Source: Chloroflexota bacterium (lineage in GTDB: Bacteria > Chloroflexota > Anaerolineae > 4572-78 > J111). From it: a stretch of DNA of 7,431 bases. The notes under the pieces are model-generated. The model was not told the origin of the DNA. It ran no database searches and saw only the letters and a program-made list of their open reading frames with translations. The position numbers and the translations under genes were made by a program. The stretch lies in NCBI GenBank assembly GCA_003695455.1, contig RFJF01000426.1, forward strand, positions 1 through 7,431, read 5' to 3'. This document shows positions 824-7,431 of the stretch, piece after piece. Each line of letters starts with the position of its first letter. The first letter of the stretch is position 1.

Positions 824-859
824 TTTTCACAGGTGTCGTTTTGTGGTACAGTAACCAAC
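824..859 (+). promoter_or_regulatory. Putative promoter for a leaderless agmatine-deiminase mRNA
   Basis: TTTTCA (824-829) and TACAGT (847-852) are separated by 17 nt, and TGG directly before the -10 gives an extended -10 (TGn). Seven bases after the -10 lies the GTG at 860, so transcription would start at or next to the start codon. No Shine-Dalgarno sequence is seen before either possible GTG start (833 or 860), which fits a leaderless transcript. Each hexamer matches consensus at only 4 of 6 positions. Confidence 0.35.
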
Positions 860-1975
860 GTGAATTCCAGACGACAATTCCTGAAAATATCCGGCGCAGT
901 TGCCATGTTTTTTCTGGCGGGCTGCGGAACCGGCGGGGCCGGCAATCAGGGTTCTGCAAAACCGGCAGGCAGCCGCTGGTTCATGCCGGACGAATCAGCC
1001 ATGCACAAACGCACGTGGATGGCGTTTTGCGCCGGCGAAGAGATTTGGGGTCGCAGGCTTGCGCCTGCGGTGCAGGACAACCTGGCTGCAATCGCCCGAA
1101 CTATCGCCAAATATGAGCCGGTTGTGATGCTGGTGAATCAAGAAGATTACGATATTGCCCGGAAAAAGTGCGGGCAGAACGTTGAACTGCTCAAAACATC
1201 GCTTGACGATTTGTGGGTGCGCGACACCGGGGCCACATTCGTGCAAAATCAGAATGGCGGAGTTGGGGCGGTAGACTTCAACTTTAATGGTTGGGGAGAA
1301 AAACAGACCCACCAAAGTGATGCAAAGGTTGCTCAATTTATGGCGAAGCACACCCGGGCAGAGTTGTTGAACACGCAACTGGTGCTTGAAGGCGGCGGGA
1401 TTGAGGTGGATGGGCAGGGCACAGCCATCATCACTGAAAGCTGTGTTCTCAATCCAAACCGCAACCCCGGTGTGAGCCGGCAAGATTGTGAGACCGAGTT
1501 GCAGAATCTGCTGGGGCTGCGCAAGATCATCTGGCTGCCGGGCGTTAGCGGGCAGGATATTACCGATGGTCACACAGATTTTTACGCCCGCTTTGTTCGG
1601 CCAGGCGTGGTAGTGGCCCATTTGGAGAATGATCCCCGATTTTACGACTACGAGGTCACCCGCGTTCACCTTGAACTGCTGCAATCAGCCACAGACGCTG
1701 CCGGCAATCAACTGGATGTGGTCGTCCTGGAAGGGCCGCAGAGCATCCGCCCCAAGTATGCCAGTGACGATTTTGCAGCCGGATATGTAAATTTTTACGT
1801 GGCAAACGGGGTTGTGGTTGCGCCTGAATTTGGCGACAGTGACGCGGATGACAAGGCGCGGGCAACGCTGGGCCGCCTGTTCCCAACACGTAAAATCGTG
1901 CAACTCAACATTGATGCCATTGCGGCGGGCGGCGGCGGCATTCACTGCACAACGCAACAGGAGCCTCTTCCCTGA
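860..1975 (+). CDS. Exported agmatine deiminase-family enzyme (Tat lipoprotein)
   Basis: This is a guanidine-group-modifying enzyme of the agmatine deiminase / bacterial peptidylarginine deiminase family (PAD_porph type). The family hydrolyses agmatine to N-carbamoylputrescine plus ammonia, or peptidyl-arginine to citrulline. Numbering from GTG 860 (371 aa): substrate-end motif MPDESAMHKRTWMAF (42-56), DDLWVRDTGATF with catalytic-type Asp122, EGGG (177-180), LNPNRNPGVS (about 197-206), DGHTDFYARF with His238, and GGGGIHC with the nucleophilic Cys363 near the C-terminus. All active-site landmarks are present. The N-terminus reads MNSRRQFLK, a Tat motif, then a hydrophobic stretch ending FLAGC (Cys22), a lipobox, so the mature enzyme is probably lipid-anchored outside the membrane. 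The in-frame GTG at 833 (380 aa) is the alternative start; I prefer 860 because the Tat n-region is then of normal length. Agmatine versus arginine-type substrate is not settled. Confidence 0.9.
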   Translation: MNSRRQFLKISGAVAMFFLAGCGTGGAGNQGSAKPAGSRWFMPDESAMHKRTWMAFCAGEEIWGRRLAPAVQDNLAAIARTIAKYEPVVMLVNQEDYDIARKKCGQNVELLKTSLDDLWVRDTGATFVQNQNGGVGAVDFNFNGWGEKQTHQSDAKVAQFMAKHTRAELLNTQLVLEGGGIEVDGQGTAIITESCVLNPNRNPGVSRQDCETELQNLLGLRKIIWLPGVSGQDITDGHTDFYARFVRPGVVVAHLENDPRFYDYEVTRVHLELLQSATDAAGNQLDVVVLEGPQSIRPKYASDDFAAGYVNFYVANGVVVAPEFGDSDADDKARATLGRLFPTRKIVQLNIDAIAAGGGGIHCTTQQEPLP

Positions 1976-2722: not shown

Positions 2723-3073
2723 ATGGATAAGCCAAAGAATTACGAATTACGGGCCATGCACGCCACCCTGTGCCAGGCCATTGCCGACCCAACCCGCATC
2801 GCCCTGCTGTACGAACTGGGCGACGGGCGCAAGCACGTGTCGCAACTGGTAGGCAGCCTGCAACTGCCGCAGGCCACGGTCTCGCGTCACCTCAAAATAC
2901 TGCGGGACCGTTCGCTGGTTGCCACCGAGCGCGAAGGCACGTTTGTGTACTACAGCCTGGTCTACCCCGAGGTGCTGGCGGCGCTGGATATTATGCGCAG
3001 TGTGATGCACACCAATTTGTCCGAGCAAAGCAGTTTGGCAAACGCCATTTATTTTACTCAAGGAGAGGGATAA
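2723..3073 (+). CDS. ArsR-family transcriptional regulator
   Basis: This 116-residue winged-helix repressor has the family pattern throughout: LCQAIADPTRIALLYELGDG (helices 1-2, about 16-35), HVSQLVGSLQLPQATVSRHLKILRDRSLV (helix-turn-helix, about 38-66), and the wing EREGTFVYYSL (about 69-79). Helix 3 lacks the ELCVCDL-type cysteine motif of arsenic/cadmium sensors. The only cysteine is Cys17, so the paired-cysteine persulfide switch of BigR/SqrR proteins is not visible either. AAGAGG at 2712-2717 lies 5 nt before ATG. As first gene of the operon, 5 nt before the cytochrome gene, it is probably a local autoregulator. A sulfur- or redox-related signal is suggested by the neighbouring YeeE genes, because YeeE/YedE half-transporters are often paired with ArsR regulators; the actual ligand is unknown. 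Confidence 0.92.
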   Translation: MDKPKNYELRAMHATLCQAIADPTRIALLYELGDGRKHVSQLVGSLQLPQATVSRHLKILRDRSLVATEREGTFVYYSLVYPEVLAALDIMRSVMHTNLSEQSSLANAIYFTQGEG

Positions 3074-3078: not shown

Positions 3079-4074
3079 ATGAAATCCAACAAAGTTTTAC
3101 TCCTGCTCTTCGCCAGTTTCACGCTGGTGTTGGTGGGCCTCATTTTCTCCATTCCCGACCCCGCACAGGCCCAGTGCGGCTCGTCGGCGTCGTCCTGCAA
3201 AACCTGCCACGAAACGCAGGGCCAGGACCCGGTCAACACCAAGGGCGACTGGCACACCCAGCACGCCTTTGGTGATTTTTGCGAGTTCTGCCACGCGGGC
3301 AACGTGCAGGCCACGGAAAAAGAGGCTGCCCACGAGGGGTTGGTTCCCCCGCTGGAAGATGTAGCCGCCAGTTGCCAGGGCTGCCACCCGCAGGATTTGA
3401 CCGAACGGGCCGGCATTTACGCTTCGGCGCTGGGGGTTGAGCTGGGCAGCGGCGGCTCCACCGGCAGTTCCAGCGGCGATTCCGGCTCCTCCGGCGATGA
3501 TTCGTCCGGCGGCGGAGATTCTACCACCAGCAGCGGCCCAGTCACGGGCGTGGCGGCCCCGCTCGGCGGCGAGGAAATTGATTTCAACCTGATTTACGCC
3601 GAACAAACCGCGCCCAAACCGCTGGTTGAAAACTGGGCCAACATCATCCTCATTTTATTGATTGTGGGGGTGGGCGTTGCCTTTTTCATCACCGCCTGGA
3701 CGTGGGAAGGTTGGGGCAACGTGATTGCCGCCTGGGTCAACAACAACGTGACCGTAGTCTCCGATGCGGTTTTGGAAGCAGGCCGCGCCGGCAGTGATGA
3801 CTCCCCCGCCGAGCCGGACTCCGCCGCCCTGCCCGGCCCGGCCCAACTGGCCGCCGCGCTGGAAGACAGCCCGGAACTGCGGCGGCTGTGGCCCAAATTA
3901 ACCCGCGCCGACAAGCGCCTGCTGCGTGACCTGAACCAGATTCTGAGCGACGAGAAGCAGGGCGCGGAACTGCTCCGCGCGGTGAGCCGGCTGGATTTGA
4001 AGCTGGCCCAATCCATCAAACAACTCAACCCCAATGACCGGGAGCTGCTGCTGGCCCTAGCCAATGAAATGTAA
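3079..4074 (+). CDS. Membrane-anchored triheme cytochrome c
   Basis: The 331-residue product is probably an electron carrier facing outside the membrane. It starts with a signal peptide (residues 1-31, cleavage likely after AQA). Three CXXCH heme-attachment motifs follow at 40-44 (CKTCH), 68-72 (CEFCH) and 99-103 (CQGCH). Extra histidines at 59, 62 and 85 could serve as distal ligands, giving bis-His hemes as in cytochrome c3/NrfH-type proteins. A Gly/Ser/Asp-rich linker spans about 123-153, a transmembrane helix about 187-207, and a charged, helical C-terminal tail of about 120 residues follows, predicted cytoplasmic. ATG 3079 is chosen because it opens the signal peptide and has GAGGG (3065-3069) 9 nt upstream, inside the end of arsR; an open frame extends farther upstream but there merely shadows arsR. 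It likely exchanges electrons with the operon's molybdoenzyme. Heme domain is certain; partner is inference. Confidence 0.9.
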   Translation: MKSNKVLLLLFASFTLVLVGLIFSIPDPAQAQCGSSASSCKTCHETQGQDPVNTKGDWHTQHAFGDFCEFCHAGNVQATEKEAAHEGLVPPLEDVAASCQGCHPQDLTERAGIYASALGVELGSGGSTGSSSGDSGSSGDDSSGGGDSTTSSGPVTGVAAPLGGEEIDFNLIYAEQTAPKPLVENWANIILILLIVGVGVAFFITAWTWEGWGNVIAAWVNNNVTVVSDAVLEAGRAGSDDSPAEPDSAALPGPAQLAAALEDSPELRRLWPKLTRADKRLLRDLNQILSDEKQGAELLRAVSRLDLKLAQSIKQLNPNDRELLLALANEM

Positions 4075-4087
4075 CGGGAGAAGACTC

Positions 4088-4621
4088 ATGCAAAAAATTA
4101 TCGGTTGGCTCAAAGCGCCCGAGTGGTCGCCGTACGCGGGCGGCGTGGCGCTGGGTCTGCTCAGCATTGGCGCGCTGTTGTTCACGGACCGGCTGTTTGG
4201 CGCGTCCGGCGCGTTTGAAAACATCGGCGGGGCCGTGATGCAGGCCGTGTCACCGGCCCTGGCCGACAACATGTACTGGAATTTTGTCATGCCTGCCGGC
4301 CTCAGTCTCGGCGTGATAATGCTCATCGGCATCATGCTGGGTTCGATGTTGTCGGCGCTGGCATCCGGCACCTTCAAATGGCGCGCCGTGTCTGACGACC
4401 AGTGGATTGCCATGTTCGGCCCTAACCGCTGGAAACGATGGGCCGCGCTCTTTGCCGGCGGCATTTTGCTGGAATACGGCGCGGGCATTGCCGGCGGCTG
4501 CACCAGCGGGCTGGCAATTTCTGGCGGGGTGCAGCTTGCGCCCGCCGCCTACCTGTTCATCGCCGGAATGTTTGCCTCCGGCATTGTCACTGCCATGTTC
4601 ATCTACGGAAAGAGGTACTAA
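4088..4621 (+). CDS. YeeE/YedE-family half-transporter 1
   Basis: This is an integral membrane protein of 177 residues, half the size of full-length YeeE/TsuA thiosulfate transporters. Hydrophobic segments lie at about 17-33, 66-92, 117-135 and 150-173. The diagnostic loop GAGIAGGCTSGLAISGG (131-147) contains the conserved Cys138, a residue type that handles the sulfur substrate in this family. ATG 4088 is chosen because GGAG (4077-4080) is 7 nt upstream; the in-frame ATG at 4064 lies inside the cytochrome gene and has no good ribosome site. It is followed after 2 nt by the second half-transporter, so the two probably form one pseudo-symmetric pore, as in PmpA/PmpB pairs. Substrate is likely thiosulfate or another sulfur or selenium species; not resolvable from sequence. 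Confidence 0.9.
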   Translation: MQKIIGWLKAPEWSPYAGGVALGLLSIGALLFTDRLFGASGAFENIGGAVMQAVSPALADNMYWNFVMPAGLSLGVIMLIGIMLGSMLSALASGTFKWRAVSDDQWIAMFGPNRWKRWAALFAGGILLEYGAGIAGGCTSGLAISGGVQLAPAAYLFIAGMFASGIVTAMFIYGKRY

Positions 4622-4623
4622 CC

Positions 4624-5181
4624 ATGTACGATATGATTGCCGCCCTGATTGTGGGCCTCATCTTCGGCTGGATTTTGCAAAAAGTCCGGCTCACGCAGTA
4701 CGCCAAAATTGTCAACGTGTTCCGCTTTACTGATTTGGCCGTGCTGAAATTTATGCTCACCGCGATTGTGGTCGGTGCGGCGGGTATCTACCTGCTCAAG
4801 GATTTGGGGATGGTCACGCTCACCGGCACCACCCCCACCTACATTGTCGGCAACCTGATTGGCGGCCTGATATTTGGGGTGGGGATGGCCTGGGCCGGCT
4901 TCTGACCGGGCACGTGTGCCGCCGGTGGCGGCCAGGGCAATGTAGATTACCTGATTCCCGGAATGCTCGGTTTTCTGGTAGGCGCCATTCTTTTTGGATT
5001 AACGTACGGCAGTGTCTACCCGGCTGTGTCGGCGATTGCCAACCTGGGTAACACCTACATGCCGGATTTGTTCAATGCCAACGCCTGGCTGTTGATTGTG
5101 CTGCTGGCGCTGGTATCGGCCTACCTGTTCTATATTTTAGGCAAAAAGGGCGACCCCAGAGCGAAATCGCAAACCATGTAA
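4624..5181 (+). CDS. YeeE/YedE-family half-transporter 2, putative selenoprotein (Sec94 encoded by TGA 4903-4905)
   Basis: Read through the in-frame TGA at 4903-4905, this gene encodes 185 residues ending at TAA 5179-5181, matching its 177-residue partner in size. The segment around the TGA reads GMAWAGF-U-PGTCAAGGGQG. YeeE/YedE proteins have G-[FY]-C-P-G-T here, so the TGA replaces a conserved cysteine. Hydrophobic segments occur on both sides of it (about 4-18, 39-58, 73-92, 109-135, 153-174), so neither piece alone is a complete half-transporter. A SECIS-like hairpin follows the TGA (see 4918-4932). Cys98 gives a U-x3-C pair. The homologous cysteines in TsuA relay thiosulfate through the pore; selenocysteine there would be more nucleophilic and more acidic. 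ATG 4624 begins 2 nt after the first half-gene, with AGAGG (4611-4615) upstream. Alternatives are a nonsense mutation or a base error (TGC/TGT to TGA); the hairpin and intact downstream frame argue against both. Confidence 0.85.
4903..4905 (+). other. In-frame TGA, candidate selenocysteine codon
   Basis: The TGA is codon 94 of the YeeE half-transporter 2 gene. It stands between codons for GF and PGT, at a position normally occupied by Cys in the family. The same frame is open for a further 91 codons with family-like membrane sequence, then ends in TAA directly before the ribosome site of the next gene. Confidence 0.85.
4918..4932 (+). promoter_or_regulatory. Bacterial SECIS-like hairpin
   Basis: GCCGCC (4918-4923) pairs perfectly with GGCGGC (4927-4932), leaving a 3-nt loop GGU (4924-4926). 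The loop starts 18 nt after the TGA, as the 7th codon. From memory, the E. coli fdhF SECIS also has its GGUC loop starting 18 nt (codon 7) after UGA, with the loop G and U contacting SelB. A bulged U in the stem, present in fdhF, is not evident here. Such an element recruits SelB with selenocysteyl-tRNA to the ribosome. Confidence 0.75.
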
Positions 5182-5192
5182 AGAGGGACACA

Positions 5193-7431
5193 ATGACCCA
5201 TTTGACACCAACTCAAACCGAAAATGAAACAGCGTCCACCCTGTCGCGCCGCCAGTTTTTGGGCGTGGGGCTGGGCGCCGCCGCCGGCGCGGGGCTGCTG
5301 AGCCGCTTCAACCTGCTCAAACCCGCCGCCGACCCCGCCGCACTGCCCGTTGCCGACAGCGTGGAATATTACCCGCCCGTGCAATTTGACCGCGAAGTGT
5401 TCACCCTGTGCGAAATGTGCGTCTGGCGCTGCGGTGTGCGGGCCAAAATCAAAGACGGTGTGGTCCGCAAACTCGATGGCAACCCCTTCCACCCCCATTC
5501 CCGGGGGATGCTCTGCCCGCGCGGGCAGGCCGGCGTCGCCACGCTGTACGACCCGGACCGGCTCAAATACCCGCTCATCCGCAAAGGGCCGCGCGGCGAA
5601 GGCCAGTTTGTGCGCGCCAGTTGGGAAGAGGCGCTCGATTACGTGGCCAGCCGGATGCTGGAAATCAAAGAGAAATACGGCCCGCAGGCCATGATTTTCA
5701 GCACCACCCACAACCTGATTCAAACCCAGTTTGAAAACCTGCTCAAAGCCTACGGCTCGCCCAACTACGGCACGCAGCGTTCGCTCTGCTTCAACGCCAT
5801 GATTACCGCCAACCTGATGACCTTTGGCATGGAAGAGCCGGGCCGCGATTACAGCGGCGTCAAATATATCATCCTCACCGGGCGCAACCTGCTGGAAGCT
5901 ATCTCCAACTCTGAAACGCAGGATTTGGTGGCGGCCCTGCACCGGGGGGCCAAACTGGTGGTGCTGGACCCGCGTTTCACCAAAACCGCCGCCAAAGCCG
6001 ACTTGTGGTTGCCCATCAAGCCCGGCACCGACCTGGCCTTTCACCTGGCGCTGCTCAACGTGATTATTTCCGAAGGGCTGTACAACGCCGAATTTGTGGA
6101 GCGGAACACCGTCGGCTTTGATGAAGTGAAGGCCGAAGTTGCCGGCTACACGCCGGAATGGGCCGCCAGCAAGTGCGAAATCCCCGCCGACACCATCCGG
6201 CAGGTGGCCCGCGAATTCGCCGCCGCCGCGCCGCACGCCTTTGCCCACCCCGGCTGGCGCACCAGCAACTTCCTCAACTCCTTCCAGACCGAGCGCGCCA
6301 TTGGCGTATTGAACGCCATTGTGGGCAACTGGGGCCAGCCCGGCGGCTTTTTTGCCGCCGCCGGCGAAGGGGGCGGCATCGAACTGGGCAGTGTGCCCCA
6401 GCCGCCTTACCCCCGCGTCAGCGCCATTCGCATGGATGGCGTGCCGTGGAAATACCCGCTGGTGCCGCTCAAGCTGGGCGTGTTTCAGGAAATCCGCGAC
6501 AACATTCTCCGCGGCGACCCCTACGAGGCGCACGGCTGGTTCATTTACCGCCAGAATCCCGTTAACTCGCTGCCGGAACGGCACAAAACGCTGGAAGCGT
6601 TCAGCAAAATGGATTTCATCGTCACCACAGATGTCAGCATGAATGACACCGCCTGGTTCTCGGATGTGGTGCTGCCGGAGGCCAGTTACCTGGAACGGTA
6701 CGACCCGCTGGCCGTGATGGGCAACACGGTGTTCATTCGCCAGCCGGTGGTTGAGCCGTTGTTTGAAAGCAAGTCCGGCCTGTGGATTTTCAAGGAATTG
6801 GGCACGCGACTGGGGTTGGGTGATTATTTTCAGTACGCCGACGAAGAGGATTACATCCGGCAGCAGATTGCCCCGCTGGACATTACGCTGGACGAGTTGA
6901 AAGCGCGGGGCTACTACACCGCCCCCGCCGCCGAGACCGAAGAAGCCGCCGCCGAAGAATTCAGCTTTAACACGCCCAGCGGAAAAATCGAATTGGCCTC
7001 GGAGACGCTGCGCTCCAGCGGATTTGCCGCCGTGCCCACCTGGGAAGCGCCGCCTCCCACCGAAGAGGGGCGCTTCTACCTGCTGTCCGGCAAAGTAGCC
7101 CAGCACACCCAGTTTGCCACCCACAACAACCAGCTTTTGCACGAGCGCGTGCCGGAAAATCCGCTGTGGATGAATCCCGCCGAAGCCGCCAAACGCAGCC
7201 TGAACGATGGCGACATGGCCTGGGTTGAAAGCGAGAGCGGCAAAATTCAGACCCCGGTTCACGTGACAGAAAAAATCCGGCCTGACTGCGTCTACATGAC
7301 CCCCGGATTTGGTCACGTCAGCAAAGGGCTGACCACAGCCTTTGCCGCCGGTGTCAGCGACAGCGACCTGCACCAAACCTTCACCGACCCGGTGTCCGGT
7401 TCGCAGGCGCTCACCCAGACCACGGTCAAAA
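5193..7431 (+). CDS. Molybdopterin oxidoreductase, PhsA/PsrA-type catalytic subunit (partial at 3' end)
   Basis: This is a large DMSO-reductase-family subunit with bis-MGD cofactor and one [4Fe-4S] cluster, most like thiosulfate/polysulfide reductase catalytic subunits. Residues 18-24 (SRRQFLG) plus a hydrophobic stretch form a Tat signal, so it acts outside the cytoplasmic membrane. The cluster motif is C73-x2-C76-x3-C80-x27-C108. The Mo ligand is probably Cys199 (RSLCFNAM, codon TGC). Family segments include NAIVGNWGQPGGFF, NPVNSLP, SDVVLPEASYLERYD and NTPSGKIELAS, and a C-terminal cofactor domain with TPGFGHVSKGL. 746 codons are in the window and only a handful seem missing. GAGGG (5183-5187) lies 5 nt before ATG, 11 nt after the YeeE stop. 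An iron-sulfur and an NrfD-type subunit may follow beyond the edge. Substrate and direction (reductase or oxidase) are not determined; YeeE and cytochrome neighbours suggest sulfur oxyanion or polysulfide chemistry. Confidence 0.9.
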   Translation, partial: MTHLTPTQTENETASTLSRRQFLGVGLGAAAGAGLLSRFNLLKPAADPAALPVADSVEYYPPVQFDREVFTLCEMCVWRCGVRAKIKDGVVRKLDGNPFHPHSRGMLCPRGQAGVATLYDPDRLKYPLIRKGPRGEGQFVRASWEEALDYVASRMLEIKEKYGPQAMIFSTTHNLIQTQFENLLKAYGSPNYGTQRSLCFNAMITANLMTFGMEEPGRDYSGVKYIILTGRNLLEAISNSETQDLVAALHRGAKLVVLDPRFTKTAAKADLWLPIKPGTDLAFHLALLNVIISEGLYNAEFVERNTVGFDEVKAEVAGYTPEWAASKCEIPADTIRQVAREFAAAAPHAFAHPGWRTSNFLNSFQTERAIGVLNAIVGNWGQPGGFFAAAGEGGGIELGSVPQPPYPRVSAIRMDGVPWKYPLVPLKLGVFQEIRDNILRGDPYEAHGWFIYRQNPVNSLPERHKTLEAFSKMDFIVTTDVSMNDTAWFSDVVLPEASYLERYDPLAVMGNTVFIRQPVVEPLFESKSGLWIFKELGTRLGLGDYFQYADEEDYIRQQIAPLDITLDELKARGYYTAPAAETEEAAAEEFSFNTPSGKIELASETLRSSGFAAVPTWEAPPPTEEGRFYLLSGKVAQHTQFATHNNQLLHERVPENPLWMNPAEAAKRSLNDGDMAWVESESGKIQTPVHVTEKIRPDCVYMTPGFGHVSKGLTTAFAAGVSDSDLHQTFTDPVSGSQALTQTTVK

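What the first reader, a model, noticed from the sequence alone, without database searches (positions are those of the whole stretch)
4624..5181. Selenocysteine-containing YeeE/YedE transporter hidden behind an in-frame TGA
The sequence shows a TGA exactly in place of the cysteine in the family's G-[FY]-C-P-G-T motif. The reading frame then stays open for 91 codons of convincing YeeE sequence and ends in TAA right before the next gene's ribosome site. Conserved cysteines of the YeeE/TsuA family handle thiosulfate in the pore, so Sec at such a place would be chemically meaningful: a selenolate relay for sulfur or selenium species. YedE-type proteins have been linked to selenium metabolism by co-occurrence. 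I do not know whether a Sec form of this half-size transporter has been described.
Basis: partly seen in the sequence, partly recalled or inferred. Interest (0 to 1): 0.95.

Follow-up and report, generated by a model that had tools for sequence, protein, structure and literature searches.

The report
Selenocysteine in a sulfur transporter pore
A gene for half of a bacterial sulfur transporter carries a stop-type codon exactly where relatives have their key pore cysteine; the same codon and a following RNA hairpin recur in dozens of related genomes, so the cell is predicted to insert selenocysteine there, which would likely help pass reactive sulfur through the membrane.

Summary
The TGA at 4903-4905 replaces the Cys of G[FY]CPGT in a 185-residue YeeE/YedE half-transporter. 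In 83 distinct rows the site is TGA in 51 and Cys in 32, nothing else. On a tree the state switches 10 times. A bacterial SECIS-type hairpin follows: 45 of 51 TGA genes meet the published model, 3 of 32 Cys genes do. Eight genomes of a Bacillota draw have TGA at the same site. Own MAG (87% complete): selA and selB fragments found, selC and selD not; five TGA relatives have all four.

Sec94 aligns with TsuA Cys91, the partner half's Cys138 with Cys293. The pair sits in a conserved operon with a triheme cytochrome and a PhsA-like molybdoenzyme. Most likely it is a split sulfane-sulfur importer with a selenolate in its relay; transport is inferred.

A Sec YeeE/YedE is already catalogued with motif GUxSG; this site, G[FYT]UPGT, does not fit it. 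New variant of a known kind.

The parts
2723..3073 (+). ArsR/SmtB-family regulator, first gene of the cluster
   Evidence: PF01022 44.2 bits, NF033788 80.8 over cut-off 55; an ArsR-like hit somewhere in the fetched DNA of 55 of 82 relatives, any orientation
3079..4074 (+). triheme c-type cytochrome (three CxxCH), probably membrane-anchored (hydrophobic stretch read by eye); no Pfam or NCBIfam family
   Evidence: CKTCH, CEFCH, CQGCH at residues 40, 68, 99; no family hit; hit in 77 of 82 relatives
4088..4621 (+). YeeE/YedE half 1 (C-terminal-half type, PmpA-like), 177 aa, motif GGCTSG
   Evidence: PF04143 65.5 bits, positions 169-309 of the profile; profile A5 aligns Cys138 with TsuA Cys293
4499..4501 (+). 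TGC codon of Cys138 of half 1, partner pore cysteine
   Evidence: invariant in A5, 43 rows; TGC or TGT, never TGA, in the 72 of 83 rows in which GGCTSG was read in frame; the other 11 were missed or read out of frame by the script
4624..5181 (+). YeeE/YedE half 2 (N-terminal-half type, PmpB-like), 185 residues with TGA read through
   Evidence: PF04143 73.2 bits, positions 9-153 of the profile; 51-58% identity to seven homologs, up to 80%
4903..4905 (+). in-frame TGA, predicted Sec94, aligned with TsuA Cys91
   Evidence: alignments
4915..4917 (+). TGT codon of Cys98, four residues after the Sec; possible selenylsulfide partner
   Evidence: Cys in 50 of 51 TGA rows and 22 of 32 Cys rows; Leu in three of eight Bacillota TGA genes
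4918..4932 (+). SECIS-type hairpin GCCGCC-GGT-GGCGGC, loop 18 nt after the TGA
   Evidence: meets the published bSECIS model; pair counts
5193..7430 (+). PhsA-like molybdopterin oxidoreductase, probably exported (twin-arginine-like SRRQFL start, by eye), runs off the contig
   Evidence: PF00384, PF04879, PF01568; NF012032 PhsA 601 bits, below cut-off 694; hit beside the pair in 79 of 82 relatives

Best explanation
The gene encodes one half of a two-subunit YeeE/YedE transporter in which an in-frame TGA stands in place of the central pore cysteine and is predicted to be decoded as selenocysteine by a SECIS-type hairpin 18 nt downstream; with its Cys-bearing partner half it would likely import sulfane sulfur or thiosulfate by handing it from Cys138 of half 1 to the selenolate of Sec94. 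Shown here: TGA/Cys exclusivity at the site, hairpin conservation linked to TGA, alignment of Sec94 and Cys138 with TsuA Cys91 and Cys293, and the conserved operon with a PhsA-like molybdoenzyme. Inferred: Sec insertion itself, pairing of the two halves, substrate and direction, and a link between the imported sulfur and the neighbouring respiratory reductase, whose sulfur chemistry the transporter would feed on or drain. Cys98 may close a selenylsulfide with Sec94 as a resting or resolving state (inference).
For: Of the nine closest matches in a Bacillota draw eight have TGA there and one Cys. bSECIS model met by 45 of 51 TGA and 3 of 32 Cys rows. Hairpin stability against synonymous codon resampling: mean z -1.57 for TGA rows, -0.04 for Cys rows. 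Pair counts: 89.8% of cells paired in TGA rows, 0 of 500 shuffles as high, 15 double-sided changes against 3.6 expected; Cys rows 64.7%, as shuffled. On the tree 8 independent TGA/Cys pairs: a strong stem (45 of 51 TGA rows, 4 of 32 Cys rows) goes with TGA in 5.6 on average, opposite in 0.0, no difference in 2.4; sign test median p 0.031, range 0.016-0.375. L095 and L110 are 496/520 identical in DNA around the site yet TGT and TGA. selA, selB, selD and tRNA-Sec in all five TGA relatives. Transport: TsuA Cys91 and Cys293 are called indispensable (PMC11582611, passages); a two-gene half-size pair, YedE1E2, imports zero-valent sulfur and both its conserved Cys are essential (PMC10812762, passages).
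Against: No protein-level evidence. The own MAG shows no selC (best RF01852 hit, 47.3 bits, is a tRNA-Ser) and no selD; selA is a C-terminal fragment below cut-off at a contig end; its 19 formate-dehydrogenase-type matches hold no inner stop, so no second selenoprotein of that kind was seen. The window's hairpin taken alone is not beyond synonymous resampling (p 0.17 and 0.11). tRNA-Sec does not separate the two forms: 60 bits or more in 32 of 42 TGA genomes and 21 of 30 Cys genomes. Six of 51 TGA rows miss the strict SECIS rules, L096 by far (-2.7). The sign test over independent pairs is only just under 0.05. The third TsuA relay cysteine, Cys22, is Thr24 here. The AlphaFold model of half 2 is poor (pLDDT 61; best PDB match the TsuA mutant 6lep, E 0.74, TM 0.51), and half 1 found no TsuA match. 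Why a probably periplasmic reductase needs a sulfur importer is not explained.
Confidence: 0.78

Rival explanations
1. The TGA is a genuine stop or pseudogene mutation: the gene makes a 93-residue fragment, or two fragments by re-initiation.
For: The own MAG lacks detectable selC and selD; an ATG at 4963 opens a 72-aa frame.
Against: TGA at one codon in 51 of 83 distinct rows and Cys in the rest; third-position bias continues downstream; no further in-frame stop in the matched region of the 51 TGA rows, its last three residues aside; hairpin constraint.
Confidence: 0.03
2. TGA is read as another amino acid (a code like table 4 or 25, or a suppressor tRNA).
For: 4 of the 120 listed database proteins carry Trp at the site, apparently because TGA was called as Trp.
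Against: The alternative residue is always Cys in the 83 rows; the frame at 833-1975 of the same contig ends in TGA; the hairpin and SelA/SelB point to Sec.
Confidence: 0.02
3. Sec is inserted, but the pair is not an importer: it senses or relays redox state (signal transduction like SoxT1B), or exports sulfite, sulfide or selenium species made by the neighbouring reductase.
For: An ArsR regulator is the first gene; SoxT1B, a YeeE relative, acts as a signalling unit (PMC11582611, abstract and passages); the reductase is probably periplasmic (start read by eye); Cys22 is absent.
Against: Half 1 and the molybdoenzyme accompany half 2 far more often than ArsR does (80 and 79 against 55 of 82); YedE1E2 imports and does not export zero-valent sulfur.
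Confidence: 0.27

Closest known systems
YeeE/YedE thiosulfate transporter family selenoprotein, motif GUxSG (WP_012471001.1), listed in PMC13188914 and, without motif, in PMC9312934
   Same: PF04143 family with a predicted Sec
   Different: Motif GUxSG against G[FYT]UPGT here. I could not fetch that protein, so whether its Sec lies at the same pore position is open; TsuA Cys91 itself sits in GGCASG, and half 1 here has GGCTSG.
TsuA/YeeE of Spirochaeta thermophila (6LEO, 6LEP, 8J4C, 8K1R)
   Same: Sec94 aligns with Cys91 and half 1 Cys138 with Cys293
   Different: One chain against two genes; Cys22 is Thr24 here; equivalog scores far below cut-off (50.7 of 400). A YeeD/TusA partner was not searched for.
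PmpA/PmpB and YedE1E2 half-size pairs (PMC11582611, PMC10812762)
   Same: Two half-size genes with one conserved pore Cys each; PmpB Cys equals Cys91, PmpA Cys equals Cys293
   Different: 177 and 185 aa against about 130; Sec in the Cys91 half; beside a PhsA-like molybdoenzyme, where the papers name PDO, rhodanese and other sulfur genes for YedE1E2. Not compared by direct alignment here.
Selenium-linked YedE (TIGR04112, NF033796)
   Same: Distant family relation, both tied to selenium
   Different: Scores 27.6 of 200 and 30.6 of 350 bits; the link there is gene neighbourhood and co-occurrence with Se genes, not Sec in the protein (PMC5322559, passages).

Membership tests
bacterial selenoprotein | in-frame TGA conserved in relatives, Cys in the other homologs | tested here: met
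   51 TGA and 32 Cys of 83 rows
bacterial selenoprotein | bSECIS hairpin (loop 3-9 nt with early G, stem 4-16 bp, spacing 16-37 nt, energy at most -7.5) | tested here: met
   window: loop GGT, 6 bp, 18 nt, -10.4; model as given in PMC13188914
bacterial selenoprotein | selA, selB, selC, selD in the genome | tested here: inconclusive
   selB fragment 302 bits over cut-off, selA fragment 208 bits under cut-off 267.9, selC and selD not found in an 87% complete MAG; same-genus G402 has tRNA-Sec but no selD over cut-off, family member G410 has both
bacterial selenoprotein | selenium in the protein | not testable with these tools
   no cells or proteomics
YeeE/YedE (PF04143) | profile score over cut-off | tested here: met
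   73.2 and 65.5 bits, cut-off 27
YeeE/YedE (PF04143) | pore relay positions Cys91 and Cys293 | tested here: met
   Sec94 and Cys138; the half 1 match to TsuA is weak (E 0.0088)
TsuA thiosulfate transporter equivalog | score over NF052577 or NF041049 cut-off | tested here: not met
   50.7 of 400, 37.5 of 645
TsuA thiosulfate transporter equivalog | third relay cysteine Cys22 | tested here: not met
   Thr24 in the window, Thr in 77 of 83 rows at that fixed offset
catalogued Sec-YeeE | motif GUxSG | tested here: not met
   GFUPGT in the window; the TGA rows read G[FYT]UPGT
PmpAB/YedE1E2 half-size pair | two adjacent half-size genes, one conserved pore Cys in each | tested here: met
   half 1 found beside half 2 in 80 of 82 relatives; Cys138 invariant in 43 rows; in half 2 the Cys is Sec or Cys
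PmpAB/YedE1E2 half-size pair | import of zero-valent sulfur | not testable with these tools
   needs an uptake assay
selenium-linked YedE | TIGR04112 or NF033796 cut-off | tested here: not met
   27.6 of 200, 30.6 of 350

The most novel reading that the evidence does not exclude
A lineage of split sulfur channels in Anaerolineae and Bacillota uses a selenolate as the conducting relay atom inside the membrane pore, swapping freely between Se and S over evolution (ten switches on the tree), as a fixed part of a respiratory sulfur-reductase operon. A sister rhodanese-fused branch carries Sec at the same pore site and again at its C-terminal GGGUG tail, giving a Sec-to-Sec sulfur relay from pore to tail.
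Probability: 0.5. Interest if true: 0.87.

Novelty: new variant of a known kind. Interest (0 to 1): 0.76.

Why it matters
Sec is usually seen in redox enzymes (general knowledge); here it would lie in the substrate path of a membrane transporter, at the position where TsuA needs Cys91. The natural Se/S swaps between close relatives (L095/L110, L046/L048) make the question what selenium buys in sulfur transfer directly testable. A gene caller that takes TGA as stop would cut these transporters at residue 93 and so hide half of the pair from surveys of sulfur respiration in Anaerolineae.

Tried and rejected
Rejected: sequencing error, pseudogene and alternative genetic code (see rivals). Rejected as evidence: the selenium-YedE co-occurrence (other subfamily), and selC presence as a separator of TGA and Cys forms (32 of 42 against 21 of 30; one search ran with stricter filters). 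Led nowhere: Rfam scan of the window gave three weak unrelated hits; no Fdh-type selenoprotein in the own genome, none of the 19 matches has an inner stop; AlphaFold and Foldseek weak; plasmid search found only remote relatives, 12 records under 60% identity. I could not fetch WP_012471001.1, nor read PMC12013261 (not held). PMC2398784 and PMC5029168 held none of the YeeE/YedE words asked for in the main text, nor did PMC12013277. Literature searches; no mention of a Sec form with G[FY]UPGT was seen in what they listed, but most papers were seen as listings only and supplements could not be read.

Limits of counts: 25 of 105 relatives were not returned. The 83 rows are 80 loci plus window, L035 and L039; L125 was dropped as a copy of L046, and L036-L038, L040 and L041 were left out because they repeat L062, L069, L116, L054 and L094. 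L087 and L088 were added after a look by eye. For tRNA-Sec, 43 of 48 TGA loci were given (five left out as the same genome or searched) and 42 were held; 30 of 32 Cys loci were given. Counts at 60 bits or more are my reading of the score tables. In one search, 18 of the 20 loci were read (L140 and L145 were not). The 120 proteins are the best of 2535 and, by the tool's length rule, cannot include forms cut at the TGA.

Full report
Observation. The window (7431 bases) is a whole contig of a 4.4-Mb, 929-contig, 87% complete MAG. Its nearest named relatives at this gene are Anaerolineales and other Chloroflexota MAGs. The frame 4624-5181 contains one TGA at 4903-4905 inside GF-TGA-PGT, then 91 sense codons and TAA. 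The read-through product is a clear Sulf_transp protein.

TGA or Cys, nothing else. A search of 400 genomes of the phylum found seven full-length close homologs (52-59% identity): five have one TGA at exactly this codon, two have TGC. A scan of the GTDB contigs, by peptide patterns away from the site, found 105 relatives, 80 of them returned: 48 TGA, 32 Cys, none with another residue or with TAA/TAG. The combined set used below has 83 distinct rows, 51 TGA and 32 Cys. Outside Chloroflexota, TGA occurs in Bacillota: in a draw of 398 genomes around L096, the nine closest matches are eight TGA and one Cys at the site (two of the eight, G441 and G445, are the genomes of L096 and L105); the nine remoter loci that were read have Cys, two were not read. 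Among the 120 listed database proteins, which by the length rule are uncut forms, 116 have Cys and 4 have Trp at the site, the latter probably TGA translated as Trp. Near-identical pairs differ at the codon: L095 (TGT) and L110 (TGA) share 496 of 520 bases.

SECIS. Right after the TGA comes GCCGCC-GGT-GGCGGC. The published bacterial model asks for a 3-9 nt loop with an early G, a 4-16 bp stem, 16-37 nt spacing and energy of at most -7.5 (PMC13188914, passages). The window has a 3-nt GGU loop, 6 bp, 18 nt and -10.4. With perfect stems only, 45 of 51 TGA rows and 3 of 32 Cys rows meet it; one of the three is L095, whose twin is a TGA gene. Stability against synonymous recoding is marked for TGA rows as a set (mean z -1.57) and absent for Cys rows (-0.04); for the window alone it is not significant (p 0.17, and 0.11). 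Pair counting gives 89.8% paired cells and 15 double-sided changes (3.6 expected) in TGA rows against 64.7% and no excess in Cys rows. The Bacillota L120 keeps the hairpin with different letters (GATCACA-GGT-TGTGGTC). On a maximum-likelihood tree with the site masked, TGA and Cys interchange 10 times, 8 forced by starred branches; in 8 independent pairs a strong stem follows TGA in 5.6 on average, goes the other way in 0.0 and does not differ in 2.4, median p 0.031, range 0.016-0.375. That p is the fairest figure; the Mann-Whitney p of 8e-11 ignores kinship.

Machinery. Own genome: selB 302 bits over cut-off, open for 488 codons and cut by the contig end; selA C-terminal part at a contig start, 208 bits, under the cut-off of 267.9; best tRNA-Sec hit is a tRNA-Ser; selD not found. 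All five TGA relatives have selA, selB, selD and tRNA-Sec, their selD itself with an inner TGA. In the window's family, the same-genus genome G402 has tRNA-Sec at 69.3 bits but no selD over cut-off; G410 has both. tRNA-Sec at 60 bits or more is in 32 of 42 TGA genomes searched and in 21 of 30 Cys genomes, so it permits but does not separate.

What the protein is. Half 2 aligns with residues 5-102 of S. thermophila TsuA, Sec94 on Cys91; half 1 aligns more weakly with 227-330 (E 0.0088), Cys138 on Cys293. PmpB and PmpA are described the same way, and Cys91 and Cys293 are called indispensable (PMC11582611, passages). In TsuA, Cys293, Cys91 and Cys22 are stacked at 8.6 and 6.7 angstrom and are proposed to relay thiosulfate (PMC11073785, passages). 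The half-size pair YedE1E2 imports zero-valent sulfur, not the reverse, and needs both its conserved Cys (PMC10812762, passages). Cys22 is Thr24 here. Half 1 is Cys in all 72 rows read in frame, never TGA; 11 rows were missed or read out of frame. Cys98, one turn after the Sec, is present in 50 of 51 TGA rows and 22 of 32 Cys rows, but three of the eight Bacillota TGA genes have Leu there, so it is not required.

Operon. In 82 relatives, searched with the window's own proteins and three from relatives, half 1 is found in 80, the PhsA-like molybdoenzyme in 79, the triheme cytochrome in 77, the FeS protein in 70 and ArsR in 55; contig ends explain an unknown part of the gaps. The membrane subunit is NrfD-type in some and cytochrome b561-type in others. 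The molybdoenzyme is nearest to thiosulfate reductase PhsA but below its cut-off. Other neighbours, TusA or rhodanese genes among them, were not searched for.

Mechanism. I take the pair to be a split sulfane-sulfur or thiosulfate importer in which sulfur passes from half 1 Cys138 to the Sec94 selenolate. Sec is a better nucleophile and leaving group than Cys (general knowledge), which would speed a thiol-sulfur relay or protect it from irreversible oxidation. Substrate, direction and the link to the reductase are inferred.

Relation to what is known. Two reviews list a YeeE/YedE selenoprotein (WP_012471001.1), one giving the motif GUxSG (PMC13188914, PMC9312934, passages). The TGA genes here read G[FYT]UPGT and lie in a half-size, operon-borne branch. 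For the window's protein no NCBIfam model reached its cut-off. So this is a new variant of a known kind, with wide distribution and a natural Se/S swap series.

Side branch. G402, of the window's own genus, has a rhodanese-fused half 2 with TGA at the same pore motif, a SECIS-type hairpin (loop GGTC, spacing 20, -8.2), and a second TGA in a C-terminal GGGUG tail followed by a 3' hairpin; G406 has pore Cys, no such pore hairpin, but the same TGA tail and hairpin. Ten YeeE proteins of other genomes with a similar C-terminal end (compared by eye, not aligned) finish in GGGCG. This supports Sec use in this family and repeats the pore-site result in a second branch.

Noticed in passing
L128 (G402:C24) and L127 (G406:C343), minus strand: Rhodanese-fused YeeE half with a probable second Sec: tail TGGG-TGA-GGC-stop with a hairpin in the 3' flank (-12.0 and -9.6), where ten similar proteins end in GGGCG; in G402 the pore motif is TGA as well.
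   Followed up: partly
L128, L127: The rhodanese domain reads VVMSNDE where an active-site Cys is usual (recalled), so the GGGUG/GGGCG tail may supply the nucleophile.
   Followed up: no
L095:3761-3805: Cys (TGT) form that keeps the full SECIS-type hairpin, next to a 95% identical TGA gene (L110): a recent Se/S switch.
   Followed up: partly
P0042, P0090 and two more of the listed proteins: Trp at the Sec site, apparently TGA translated with code 4 by an annotation pipeline.
   Followed up: no
G318, G055, G297, G224, G248, G377, G028 and family genomes: SelD of these genomes has an inner TGA and so is probably a selenoprotein itself.
   Followed up: no
window 833-1975: Agmatine-deiminase-like (PAD_porph, 361 bits) protein with a twin-arginine-type or lipoprotein-type start; no link to the operon was looked for.
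   Followed up: no
L130 (G571), L139 (G614), L140 (G843): Bacillota homologs for which the search lists an inner TAA (and in L130 two TGA); L139 has TGT at the site. Possibly true ends within the match or decayed copies.
   Followed up: no
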